Shown piece after piece: positions 8,708 through 64,000 of a DNA stretch of 64,000 bases. The notes under the pieces are model-generated. The model was not told the DNA's origin and did no database searches. It was given only the letters and a program-made list of their open reading frames with translations. The stretch is taken from the NCBI RefSeq assembly GCF_001647275.1, contig NZ_LRMM01000013.1, forward strand, positions 1-64,000, given 5' to 3'. The translations under genes and the position numbers were made by a program. How positions within the stretch are numbered: the stretch's first letter is position 1; each line of letters begins with the position of its first letter. The stretch is from Rufibacter ruber. Its GTDB lineage: Bacteria; Bacteroidota; Bacteroidia; Cytophagales; Hymenobacteraceae.

Positions 8708-8747
8708 GCTGTTTTGGGGCTGTTTTCTCAAAAACAGCCCCAAAACG
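8708..8747. repeat. HP hairpin
   Basis: GCTGTTTTGGGGCTGTTTT / AAAACAGCCCCAAAAC around loop CTCA, 10 bp past the protease stop and upstream of dgt on the same strand. Confidence 0.85.
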
Positions 8748-12744: not shown

Positions 12745-12847
12745 GCAGAACCCCCGTGACTTACACCATCTATACCCCACTTTAACAGGACGTTAACATC
12801 TGCGCCAGCAGCTGGGCGGGCAACCCAGGGCGGCCCTGCCGAAAGGG

Positions 12848-12897
12848 ACTTCCTGTTTTGGGGCTGTTTTCAGAAAAACAGCCCCAAAACAGGAAGT
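12848..12897. repeat. HP hairpin, perfect copy
   Basis: The arms are exact complements over about 22 bp: ACTTCCTGTTTTGGGGCTG on one side and CAGCCCCAAAACAGGAAGT on the other, loop region TTTTCAGAAAAA. It sits 8 bp past the stop of purU. Confidence 0.9.
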
Positions 12898-12904
12898 CTA
12901 ATCC

Positions 12905-14601: not shown

Positions 14602-14644
14602 TCGTTTTCAAGCTGTTTTTAGAAAAATAGGCCAGAAACAGAAA
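14602..14644. repeat. HP hairpin, eroded
   Basis: CGTTTTCAAGCTGTTTTTAG and AAAAATAGGCCAGAAACAG. The two arms belong to different variants (AAGC against GGCC). Confidence 0.55.
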
Positions 14645-15083
14645 TGGGCCCAGACGCCCGCAGGCCCTGCAGACGCTATGAGGCCTTTGGCATTTGTGAT
14701 GGTTGGAAGATGGGACTGGCGCGAGACTCCGGTTCCGTACCCTGAGATGGGGCGATTCTCCAGCCTGGCGGGAAACCGCGGGAAGTTCAGCCATACGTGG
14801 ATCCCAGCCCCAACCCCTCCCTGGCGGGGAATGATCTGGAATGCGTGGGGCAAGTGCCGGGTGACCGTAGATCTGCAATGCATGTCCTCGGCTGTCCGGG
14901 ATTTGCCATTCTGGACCTGCTACCTCCGGATTTGCAATCTGCGGCGCCTGCAGATCAAACGTGCCGCTGCGGGGATTGCAAATCCCCGTGTACCAGCTTC
15001 CGGATTGCAAATCCGGAAGAGCACTGTGATTGGCAGAACGCGACTATATGCGGCAAGAAAGATTATTCAGGAATGCGTGTCCT
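14645..15083. other. Gene-free stretch with short palindromes
   Basis: No credible gene. It contains degenerate members of the CGAGTCT/AGACTCG mini-hairpin family near 14719-14790 (GCGAGACTCC) and several phrases around GATCTGCAATGC. It joins repeat block A without a clear border. Confidence 0.5.
14970..15019. repeat. Two GGATT/AATCC mini-hairpins
   Basis: CGGGGATT-gca-AATCCCCG at 14970-14988 and CTTCCGGATT-gca-AATCCGGAAG at 14997-15019. The inner GGATT...AATCC core is shared while the outer arms differ but stay complementary. Confidence 0.75.
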
Positions 15084-15166: not shown

Positions 15167-15341
15167 TTTCTTTTCATCTCAGGTACTTCAGCACGAATGA
15201 AGCAGCAATGCCTGGTCTCGCAGCCGCGCCGCGAGGGCAGGCAGAGACGGGCACGAGTCTGAAGACTCGCGCCAGCGCGGGATGTGGGAAACCATCGCAA
15301 CAGGCAAGCAACAATGATCAATCAACCCTTCTGCTCTGACT

Positions 15342-15570
15342 GATGTGCGCAGCACGGGCTCGCCTCAGGCTAGCGGAACAGCAACGGTTACCTGCAGAGG
15401 CAGACATAACATCACAAGCTATTATAGGAGAGGAACCGAAACCAGTCCTGGGGGTGAGCGCCTCTGTTAATACGGTGCCGAAGGCAACGCCAAAGGCGTA
15501 GTTTTAACAGCAGTGCGAGCCGCCAGGACGGGGCCCCGCGGCCGTGAGCGCTTACCGGAAAAGATGAAAC
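15342..15570 (+). ncRNA. Candidate structured RNA element, copy A
   Basis: 229 nt from GATGTGCGCAGCACGGGCTC to CCGGAAAAGATGAAAC, about 70-95% alike copy B by eye except in the hairpin tips. Nested pairing is visible: GTCCTGG (15445-15451) with CCAGGAC (15523-15529), CTGTTAA (15464-15470) with TTAACAG (15504-15510), and inside these GCC-gaa-GGC and ACGCC-aaa-GGCGT. The inner helices have different sequences in copy B yet still pair. Strand is chosen only by the direction in which I read it; the other strand would fold too. No known family is assigned and no protein gene is adjacent. Confidence 0.5.
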
Positions 15571-15806
15571 AACTCAATAAGTGAAGCACCGCAGCAAACG
15601 GGAGAGCCAGGGGAACAGCAGACTACGCATTGCATTGCAACAGCAGCATGGAACATGCAGGCTATGCACTGCAGCGGCAGCAATTGGCAGTTATCAAACT
15701 CAGGTAGCACCAACCGGCTAAGCCAGCGGAGCAGCCAACTATGCATCACAACAGCAAAGGAAGGGATTCAAATTGATAAAAGAAGAGCCCAGACAGGCTT
15801 GGGAAA

Positions 15807-15847
15807 CCTGTTTTTGACCTGTTTTTCGTAAAACAGGCTAAAAACAG
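15807..15847. repeat. HP hairpin
   Basis: CCTGTTTTTGACCTGTTTTT, loop CGT, then AAAACAGGCTAAAAACAG. It is 5 bp past the stop of the ZIP gene. Confidence 0.75.
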
Positions 15848-24268: not shown

Positions 24269-24390
24269 AATCTGTTTTCGGCGTCATACCTGTCTGTGCC
24301 TGGCGGGCAAGTCTTTTTCTGCTAGGCAGGGAGTTCCCTGGGTTAGAAATGGTACCTCTGGGCGCTGAGGGAAGGGATATTTGCCTGCCT

Positions 24391-24432
24391 CCTGTTTTAG
24401 GGCTGTTTTTCTGAAAACAGGCCCAAAACAGG
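24391..24432. repeat. HP hairpin
   Basis: CCTGTTTTAGGGCTGTTTTT / AAAACAGGCCCAAAACAGG. Second of three copies in a 530-bp gene-free gap that otherwise holds nothing I can identify. Confidence 0.8.
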
Positions 24433-24555
24433 AATTAGCAACCCACAGGTGGCGACAAAGTAACGGGCTGCGCCAGACGGCTCAAGCATACCCAAACCGT
24501 TTCACCGCCCGCTGCCGCCGCAGGGAGAGCACCTTTTTATCAGGAAAAATATCTT

Positions 24556-36327: not shown

Positions 36328-36374
36328 TTCCTGTTTTCGGGCTGTTTTCTGAAAAACGGCCCGAAAACAGGAAG
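36328..36374. repeat. HP hairpin
   Basis: TTCCTGTTTTCGGGCTG pairs with CGGCCCGAAAACAGGAA around TTTTCTGAAAAA; inner arms CGGGC/GCCCG. Confidence 0.9.
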
Positions 36375-49371: not shown

Positions 49372-49446
49372 AACGCAAAGATAACGCCCGCCACGGGATA
49401 AATAGTTTAGTCTTGGGCAGAAAAGGGAGGTATACCTGAGGCAATT

Positions 49447-49488
49447 CCTGTTTCCGGGCTGTTTTCCCAAAAACAGCCCGGAAACAGG
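49447..49488. repeat. HP hairpin, perfect
   Basis: CCTGTTTCCGGGCTG / CAGCCCGGAAACAGG, loop region TTTTCCCAAAAA. Here TTTT of the outer arm is TTTCC and the right arm GGAAA, a paired double change. Confidence 0.9.
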
Positions 49489-49508
49489 AGCTACTGCTCA
49501 AGAAATGA

Positions 49509-53960: not shown

Positions 53961-53995
53961 TTAGTCCTGAGTTCTGAGTCTGGAGTTCTGAGTGG
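53961..53995. repeat. Heptamer repeat, 5 units
   Basis: ttagtcc, tgagttc, tgagtct, ggagttc, tgagtgg. It directly abuts, and shares two bases with, the following HP element. Confidence 0.75.
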
Positions 53996-54045
53996 CAATG
54001 CGTTTTGGGGCTGTTTTCAGAAAAACAGCCCCAAAACGCATTGCC
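53994..54045. repeat. HP hairpin, longest perfect copy
   Basis: GGCAATGCGTTTTGGGGCTG pairs with CAGCCCCAAAACGCATTGCC; the stem runs for about 24 bp and includes 7 bp of flank outside the normal element, so the complementarity extends beyond the family core. Confidence 0.9.
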
Positions 54046-63472: not shown

Positions 63473-63706
63473 GATGTGCGCAGCACGGGCTCGCCCCAGG
63501 CTAGCGGATCAGCAACGGTTACCTGCAGAGGCAGAATGAGCAAGTAAGGCTGATCAGGAGAGGAACCCAAACCAGTCCTGGGGGTGAGCGCCTCTGTTAA
63601 TACGGTGCCGCTCCCGCGGCAAGGCCGGAGGGCCTAGTTTTAACAGCAGTGCTCACCGCCAGGACGGGGCCCCGCGGCCGTGAGCGCTTACCGGAAAAGA
63701 TGAAAC
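63473..63706 (+). ncRNA. Candidate structured RNA element, copy B
   Basis: 234 nt, same ends as copy A. Helices: GTCCTGG with CCAGGAC, GGTGAGCGC with GTGCTCACC (one G-T), CTGTTAA with TTAACAG, then GCCGC-tccc-GCGGC and AGGCC-ggag-GGCCT where copy A has other sequences that also pair. The flanking single-stranded parts (TACGGT, TAGTTT, CCGCGGCCGTGAGCGCTTACC) are unchanged. The GGTGAGC/GCTCACC helix is intact here but broken in copy A. Function unknown; no neighbouring protein partner. Confidence 0.5.
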
Positions 63707-63728
63707 AGTACAGCTATTAAACCAACTC

Positions 63729-63880
63729 ATCAAGCGCCAAAGCCAGGGGAAACAGCGGACTACGCATTCCTGCCGCAGCAATTGGCTGTCACCAAATACA
63801 GCATCAAGCGCCACCGCCAAGGGAGCAGCAGACTACGCATACCTGCCGCAGCCAGGGGAACAGCAGACTACGCCACTGCA
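63729..63880. repeat. 74-bp direct repeat
   Basis: Two units start with ATCAAGCGCCA at about 63728 and 63802, each continuing to GACTACGCAT and CCTGCCGCAGC; a third partial AGCAGACTACGCC follows at 63863. Similar shorter phrases occur at 15615-15740. No open frame of note. Confidence 0.6.
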
Positions 63881-64000
63881 ACAATGAAAAGAGGGAGGCC
63901 CTGCGTCAACCCGCACCACCAGGAAAACGGCAAGCTACCCAATGCAGAAACAGGCCGCTCCGCCAAAGGGACAACTGCAGACTTCCATAGCAACAACCTT

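What the first reader, a model, noticed from the sequence alone, without database searches (positions are those of the whole stretch)
15342..15570. Candidate structured RNA with compensating changes between two copies (A here, B at 63473-63706)
Seen: two 230-nt elements keep almost identical linker sequences and outer helices (GTCCTGG/CCAGGAC, CTGTTAA/TTAACAG), but the innermost hairpins differ: GCC-gaa-GGC and ACGCC-aaa-GGCGT in A, GCCGC-tccc-GCGGC and AGGCC-ggag-GGCCT in B. Both pair perfectly. Change in sequence with pairing retained is the usual sign of selection on RNA (or hairpin DNA) structure. Known: transposon-linked RNAs (HEARO/omega-RNA, group II introns, retrons) are of this size, but no such gene is next to either copy and I do not recognise the family. 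Inference: a free-standing ncRNA or the RNA-coding relic of a mobile element.
Basis: partly seen in the sequence, partly recalled or inferred. Interest (0 to 1): 0.85.

Follow-up and report, generated by a model that had tools for sequence, protein, structure and literature searches.

The report
High-copy structured RNA repeat in Rufibacter
The two look-alike hairpin segments belong to a folded, RNA-like element that sits at more than seventy places in this bacterium, is not in the RNA library searched, and keeps its shape across related species while its copies resemble each other more within a genome than between genomes, which makes it an unusual and testable genome-wide repeat.

Summary
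A (15342-15570) and B (63473-63706) are 87% alike and carry the stems named. They are two of at least 72 places in this genome (107 matches, some of them probably weak reverse-strand matches of the same places). A few genomes of other families have divergent relatives.

Selection acts on a folded + strand. On 85 distinct copies 93.7% of pair cells are standard (shuffled 75.9%) and 20 of 29 pairs have two-sided changes. G-U cells outnumber A-C cells 232 to 16. No Rfam family matches the element.

Copies lie in intergenic islands and are absent at orthologous sites of many relatives. Yet sampled shared sites mostly keep orientation while occupants differ between species about as much as unrelated copies do.

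Best reading: a new structured-RNA family that became a non-autonomous dispersed repeat, handled as a folded strand by an unidentified machinery. Mobility in trans, transcription and any host function are inferred, not shown.

The parts
15439..15576 (+). core element A (~138 nt; the part modelled as R1)
   Evidence: cmsearch R1 160.8 bits (A is in the model's training set); model R2, built only from genomes outside the family, E 1.7e-5 in the 64 kb window
63569..63712 (+). core element B
   Evidence: cmsearch R1 156.8 bits (also in training); model R2 E 6.6e-6
15345..15355 (+). 5' hairpin GUGC-GCA-GCAC of copy A, upstream of the core; kept with other sequence in some relatives and absent in others
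   Evidence: relatives (CGTGC-TTTA-GCACG, GCGC-GCA-GCGC), by eye
15445..15455 (+). lower stem P1, 5' strand (GTCCTGGGGGT)
   Evidence: helix 1 (P1 plus the GCGC/GUGC pairs): 94.6% of cells paired, 8 of 14 pairs with two-sided changes
15519..15529 (+). lower stem P1, 3' strand (GCCGCCAGGAC)
15456..15464 (+). conserved internal-loop motif, 5' side GAGCGCCUC
   Evidence: mean major-allele fraction 0.998 among 45 own copies
15510..15518 (+). conserved internal-loop motif, 3' side GCAGUGCGA (version with opposed GA/GA)
   Evidence: B and many other copies have GCAGUGCUC with full pairing instead
15465..15509 (+). apical domain with two small hairpins (15477-15485, 15487-15499); allele-like variants in this genome
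15532..15551 (+). 20-nt tail GGCCCCGCGGCCGUGAGCGC: hairpin plus GUGAGCGC, among the most conserved segments
   Evidence: 0.993 among 45 own copies; in 3 related genomes the tail pattern (up to 1 mismatch) has 119 matches and its reversed control 0
14604..14650 (.). terminator-like hairpin bounding island A on the left
   Evidence: repeat hits; by eye most element-free orthologous sites hold a single such hairpin
15807..15847 (.). terminator-like hairpin bounding island A on the right
14997..15019 (.). small palindrome CTTCCGGATTGCAAATCCGGAAG in island A, of the kind that flanks some RAYT-like genes of this genus
   Evidence: flanks

Best explanation
It is a structured-RNA family absent from Rfam 15: a long covarying stem with a conserved GAGCGCC/GUGCGA internal loop, a fast-changing apical part, and a nearly invariant 3' tail hairpin GGCC-NNGC-GGCC followed by GAGCG. 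In the genus of the window it is a non-autonomous dispersed repeat (14 to 150 matches per genome, 150 being the scoring cap), and many Pontibacter-group genomes have it too. It works by being recognised as a folded + strand (RNA most likely, single-stranded DNA possible) by a machinery encoded elsewhere, which inserts copies into intergenic islands, more often between convergent than divergent genes; directly or through recombination between copies, occupied sites get new occupants. Shown: folded + strand under selection, copy number, element-free orthologous sites, shared sites with mostly the same orientation whose occupants are about as unlike as unrelated copies. Inferred: mobility in trans, RNA rather than ssDNA as the substrate, and how replacement happens.
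For: Structure: 20 of 29 pairs with two-sided changes (shuffled mean 16.8, reached by 1 of 500), 405 two-sided cells against 141, 93.7% of cells paired against 38-49% when slid. Strand: G-U 232, A-C 16 over 103 distinct copies. Insertion: locus A occupied in 2 of 16 genomes, locus B in 1 of 16, a third site in 8 of 15. Context: convergent gene pairs 48 of 120, divergent 15 of 120 (no genome-wide baseline was computed), a bias also reported for pneumococcal BOX, RUP, SPRITE and IS elements (PMC3049150, passages seen). Sequence: mean core identity within a genome 77-89%, between genomes 59-82%; syntenic copies average only 0-4 points above the between-genome background. At the third site 5 of 8 occupants are closest to other copies of their own genome. 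Depth: model R2, from 15 sequences of five genomes outside the family, recovers A and B.
Against: No enzyme partner was found: 7 Y1_Tnp loci carry no core in stretches of 4.7-4.9 kb, and plasmid, phage and viral collections gave none. No target-site duplication was defined. Many positions are shared across species in the same orientation (59 SAME, 7 FLIP, 21 MIX comparisons), more than expected of a freely hopping element. 3 of 8 occupants of the third site (G011, G015, G008) are closer to copies of other genomes than to the few copies sampled from their own (8, 10 and 2), and several types coexist in one genome, so homogenisation is partial. Some syntenic pairs are clearly closer than background (87.5, 75.9 and 74.6% for G000/G004; 90.7 and 87.5% for G006/G013). 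Conservation of the core within a genome would also fit host function. No transcription data; a Bacteroidota-type promoter motif (recalled) was found upstream on the + strand in 0 of 186 copies.
Confidence: 0.55

Rival explanations
1. A host-functional RNA family: each island encodes or ends in a structured RNA (independent sRNA or 3' UTR module) that is kept at its site because it stabilises, ends or regulates transcripts; recombination between copies keeps them alike.
For: Internal loops and tail 92-100%, P1 90-99% conserved within each of five genomes while flanks are 62-85%; shared sites and orientation; element sense-oriented to its upstream gene in 76 of 120 cases, binomial p 0.004 against an even split; terminator-like hairpins on both sides of island A.
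Against: 14 of 16 genomes lack it at locus A, 15 of 16 at locus B (where the next gene differs in several) and 7 of 15 at the third site; no promoter motif; match numbers differ about tenfold between species.
Confidence: 0.25
2. A guide-like RNA family: a constant scaffold presents a variable apical loop of nearly fixed length that pairs with DNA or RNA targets, as in bridge RNAs or antisense RNAs.
For: Subfamily beta in G013/G006: 14 copies, 5' and 3' scaffold 92 and 97% identical, 56-59-nt loop 57.6% (shuffled 48.7). Type-2 copies: 37-38-nt loop at 71.7% against 98% scaffold in 17 copies of G009; similar contrast in G004, G005 and R. glacialis.
Against: A neutral loop would look similar; scaffold motifs were part of the selection pattern, which inflates scaffold identity; the alpha copies of this window have no such loop; targets and effectors were not searched for.
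Confidence: 0.08
3. A DNA-level repeat (BIME-like protein binding site or supercoiling relief between convergent genes) whose palindromes matter as duplex DNA.
For: Palindromes, intergenic, more often between convergent genes.
Against: G-U far exceeds A-C in the helices (232 to 16); a duplex site should not prefer the wobble pairs of one strand.
Confidence: 0.06
4. A composite REP element mobilised by RAYT transposases.
For: Y1_Tnp matches occur in 15 of the 16 genomes of the genus, six of the seven loci read look RAYT-like, and islands contain palindromes like those that flank such genes.
Against: 0 of 7 Y1_Tnp loci carry the core; G006 shows no Y1_Tnp match but has 27 core matches.
Confidence: 0.06

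Closest known systems
BOX elements of Streptococcus pneumoniae (and RUP, SPRITE)
   Same: Interspersed repeats with predicted RNA folding, over-represented between convergent genes; BOX is modular (PMC3049150, passages seen).
   Different: Other phylum; no sequence comparison was run. Here two-sided covariation and strand preference are shown across species, and shared sites carry different sequence types in different species.
REP/BIME palindromes with RAYT (TnpA_REP) transposases
   Same: Dispersed, intergenic, palindromic, gene-free; REP-like palindromes are present in the same islands.
   Different: The core is ~140 nt with an internal-loop motif and apical domain and is absent from the seven Y1_Tnp loci inspected.
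HEARO / omega-RNA of IS200/IS605-type elements (RF02033)
   Same: Size class; free-standing multi-copy cases are known (recalled).
   Different: No Rfam match even with E up to 5 around copy A; no TnpB/IscB-like gene seen among the recurrent flanking genes tested.
ERIC and Correia elements
   Same: Structured interspersed bacterial repeats (mentioned in PMC3049150; sizes recalled).
   Different: Other phyla (recalled); sequences not compared here.

Membership tests
HEARO / omega-RNA (RF02033) | matches the covariance model | tested here: not met
   cmscan of window at gathering score: 0 matches; 15200-15700 up to E 5: only SPRY4-IT1_1 at E 2.1; relatives: no match at the element
HEARO / omega-RNA (RF02033) | tnpB/iscB gene beside at least some copies | tested here: inconclusive
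   159 loci clustered by flanking ORFs; 10 representatives scanned with Pfam, no such gene; most single flanking ORFs were not annotated
Group II intron | match to Rfam intron models | tested here: not met
   no match
Group II intron | intron-encoded reverse transcriptase near some copies | tested here: inconclusive
   none among the 10 recurrent flanking proteins scanned; RVT_1 was not searched for in the genomes
REP/RAYT | copies flank the RAYT gene | tested here: not met
   0 cores in 7 stretches of 4.7-4.9 kb around Y1_Tnp genes; small palindromes do flank several of them
Interspersed structured repeat (BOX/ERIC-like kind) | tens to hundreds of dispersed copies without a conserved gene and with a conserved fold | tested here: met
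Interspersed structured repeat (BOX/ERIC-like kind) | sequence membership in BOX, ERIC or Correia | not tested
   no direct sequence comparison was made
IS110 bridge RNA | lies in an IS110 element and pairs with target and donor | not tested
   no IS110 search was run
Integron attC | R'/R'' core sites and integrase | not tested
   not searched; recalled core-site motifs not seen by eye

The most novel reading that the evidence does not exclude
A bacterial SINE-like homing RNA: a gene-free structured RNA that is copied (by an unidentified enzyme) into preferred chromosomal addresses and rewrites the occupants there, so that dozens of loci share scaffolds of the genome's own types, in some lineages with a variable loop of nearly fixed length that could serve as an address or guide.
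Probability: 0.12. Interest if true: 0.92.

Novelty: new variant of a known kind. Interest (0 to 1): 0.7.

Why it matters
If right, Hymenobacteraceae carry an RNA family absent from Rfam 15, with likely relatives in other families of the order and in one genome of another family of the class, at copy numbers that I believe are unusual for a structured RNA (recalled). Syntenic sites that stay occupied while their occupants change give a natural test bed for how dispersed repeats are replaced or made alike, and for whether a bacterial repeat can spread as RNA. The 20-nt tail and a covariance model make it easy to annotate.

Tried and rejected
Rfam: nothing at the element in the window or in relatives. 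Protein coding: an open frame runs through the tail in A (read by eye), but apical variants differ by 1, 5 or 6 bases between own copies and stems covary, so coding was rejected. RAYT as carrier: weakened. Independent transcription unit: no promoter motif of the recalled Bacteroidota type, + strand 0 of 186, - strand 3, shuffled 1. Plasmid, phage, virus carriage: no match. Consensus fold of beta: only 1 of 41 predicted pairs has a two-sided change because the scaffold hardly varies, so beta alone does not prove its fold. Literature: searches on Pontibacter/structured RNA, Bacteroidetes repeats/ncRNA, Rufibacter repeats, RAYT/Bacteroidetes, BOX/RUP/SPRITE, Hymenobacteraceae noncoding RNA, Cytophagales structured RNA, concerted evolution/REP: no title or abstract start in the listings describes this element; the listings were capped and only PMC2864571 and PMC3049150 were opened, passages only. 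Not done: R-scape, RNA-seq, a search for loop targets, replichore bias, RT or IS110 searches.

Limits of counts. Own genome: one search counts 107 matches but lists 72 places; R1 also gives weak reverse-strand matches at some of the same places (2 in the window; 11 of 114 matches), so 72 is the safe lower bound. The genus counts were scored on at most 150 candidates per genome; for G006, G013 and G005 the tail pattern gives 24, 45 and 50 places against 27, 47 and 52 matches. Synteny used high-scoring copies, not a random sample (51 own element records; 27 G004 records, some sites entered twice). Scaffold identities are for copies that match a scaffold pattern (17 of 27 G009 records, 15 of 27 G004, 6 of 9 G005, 5 of 5 R. 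glacialis). One search left out 11 reverse-strand rows. In one search one pair (columns 17/198) is unpaired in 28 of 85 copies and another (13/202) in 16. The output was cut; one search repeated the alignment on oriented copies. One syntenic beta pair (L265/L276) has flanks 79-90% alike but its loops are not among the 12 most similar pairs: one case only. I kept the odds: the point bears on how complete replacement is, not on whether the element is a dispersed repeat.

Full report
CHECK OF THE OBSERVATION. Both segments and every stem named are present at the stated coordinates. They are 86.7% identical and fold better than 198 and 200 of 200 shuffles. No Rfam 15 family reaches its gathering score anywhere in the window, and 15200-15700 searched up to E 5 gives one chance-level match.

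COPY NUMBER AND RANGE. A BLAST search of the own genome lists 40 copies of more than 270 bases, with 40 of 88 candidates scored. A covariance model R1 built from 16 copies of ten genomes gives 107 matches in the own genome, of which 72 distinct places are listed, and 14 to 150 matches in each of 16 genomes of the genus; 150 is the scoring cap. Weak reverse-strand matches at the same places can be among them. The 20-nt tail pattern gives 24, 45 and 50 places in G006, G013 and G005, and its reversed control none. The family search hits 66 of 150 genomes in 4 of 6 genera. In the order 15 of 241 genomes match R1, five of them outside the family (G046, G312, G054, G258, G358). A tail pattern finds 1 to 7 distinct places in these five genomes, no reversed-pattern match, and nothing in three other genomes. 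Model R2, built only from 15 sequences of those five genomes, recovers window copies B (E 6.6e-6) and A (E 1.7e-5). In the phylum R2 hits 4 of 395 genomes: the own genome (1 match of 9 scored candidates), two of its training genomes, and G731, in another family of the class. R2 is weak under those filters, so absence elsewhere is not proven.

STRUCTURE. On 85 distinct copies 93.7% of cells form standard pairs against 75.9% in shuffles and 38-49% in slid versions; 20 of 29 pairs have two-sided changes (shuffled mean 16.8) and 405 cells change on both sides against 141. The alignment was fitted to the model, which favours the structure; RNAalifold on the plain MAFFT alignment A1 also gave 14 of 29 pairs with two-sided changes. 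Over 103 distinct copies the helices hold 2520 Watson-Crick, 232 G-U, 16 A-C and 165 other cells. Since an A-C cell is a G-U cell of the other strand, the + strand is the one that folds; RNA and single-stranded DNA cannot be told apart by this. Opposite GGUGAGC, copies carry either GCUCACC (full pairing) or GCGARCC (opposed GA/GA), consistent with a tandem G.A (interpretation).

CONSERVATION WITHIN GENOMES. In 45 own copies the 5' internal loop GAGCGCCUC has a mean major-allele fraction of 0.998 and the tail GGCCCCGCGGCCGUGAGCGC 0.993, against 0.85 upstream and 0.80 downstream; G013, G006, G009 and G004 show the same contrast. In the beta subfamily of G013 and G006, 14 copies keep 92% and 97% scaffold identity around a 56-59-nt loop that is only 57.6% identical (48.7% when shuffled). 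Type-2 copies of G009, G004, G005 and R. glacialis show 70-78% loop against 94-99% scaffold identity, with the selection bias noted under limits. This says that copies are not all fresh duplicates and that the scaffold is constrained; it does not by itself show a guide.

SITES. At locus A the flanking genes are kept in 16 of 16 genomes, but the element is present only in G000 and G012, in the same orientation and with different sequence types; in the other 14 only 135-283 bases separate the two gene matches, and by eye most hold one terminator-like hairpin. At locus B only 1 of 16 has it (in several genomes the next gene differs, so those are not clean empty sites). At a third, convergent site 8 of the 15 genomes with the gene carry it, all in the same orientation, and 7 lack it. 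The 8 occupants are 57-79% alike; 5 of them (G000, G009, G004, G005, G001) are closest to other sampled copies of their own genome, while those of G011, G015 and G008 are closer to copies of other genomes, with only 8, 10 and 2 own copies sampled. So several types coexist and replacement is not complete. Across sampled syntenic pairs 59 comparisons agree in side and direction (42 on both sides), 7 are flipped and 21 mixed. Mean core identity is 77-89% within and 59-82% between genomes. Syntenic copies average 68.1% for G000/G004 (background 64.0), 83.2% for G006/G013 (background 79.8) and 71.8% for G000/G013 (background 71.6), with single closer pairs up to 90.7%. Genome therefore explains more than position: concerted evolution or repeated replacement. 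Independent insertion into preferred sites is an alternative that the shared orientation makes less likely but does not exclude.

SURROUNDINGS. By an ORF-length rule, neighbours are convergent in 48 of 120 and divergent in 15 of 120 cases, and the element is sense-oriented to its upstream gene in 76 of 120 (p 0.004 against an even split). Islands also hold small palindromes like those flanking RAYT-like genes elsewhere and lie among terminator-like hairpins that are frequent in the window. In 159 loci the recurrent ORFs that touch the element are read through the repeat; ten representatives of other ORF clusters are ordinary genes or have no Pfam match, none a transposase or reverse transcriptase. 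Most single flanking genes were not annotated, so a rare autonomous copy could have been missed.

MECHANISM AND NOVELTY. The best-supported reading is a dispersed, folding repeat without a recognised gene of its own that uses a machinery in trans and spreads or is rewritten within genomes. Host function at individual sites is the main rival and is not excluded. In kind it resembles BOX elements; in host range, demonstrated covariation and site-stable replacement it differs, as far as tested. I therefore call it a new variant of a known kind, with an RNA family absent from Rfam 15 at its centre.

Noticed in passing
window 8711-8746, 12847-12898, 24390-24433, 36328-36373, 49446-49489, 53994-54045 and others: Long near-perfect hairpins of the form GTTTT-n-GGGCTGTTTT..AAAACAGCCC-n-AAAAC make up about 14 of the 17 long palindromes listed in the window, a repeated terminator-like family with a species-typical sequence.
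   Followed up: partly
L277, L278, L280-L283: RAYT-like genes, several flanked by palindromes (GGCACGGAAGT..ACTTCCGCGCC, CTTCCGGATT..AATCCGGAAG) that also litter the islands around copies A and B.
   Followed up: partly
L213, L264-L276 (G013, G006): A second subfamily (tail ending CGCGAGCGC) coexists with the first in the same genomes and carries a 56-59-nt variable apical loop.
   Followed up: partly
L046, L048, L049, L051, L079 (Pontibacter burrus): Element flanks are filled with the short motif AACTATAG / CTATAGTT in many repeats.
   Followed up: no
window 15605-15642, 63728-63883: Downstream of the core a T-poor module like GCCAAGGGAACAGCAGACTACGCATTCC recurs in tandem-like fashion in this genome; function unknown.
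   Followed up: no
L300, L301 (G312, G046): The single copy in these two genomes lies at the same place, upstream of an ORF beginning or containing MENNRRNFLKTASATGLGL.
   Followed up: no
orthologous region of locus B (L285-L299): The intergenic site next to copy B holds different inserted repeat modules in different species, some inverted, and the next gene also differs in several (by eye).
   Followed up: no
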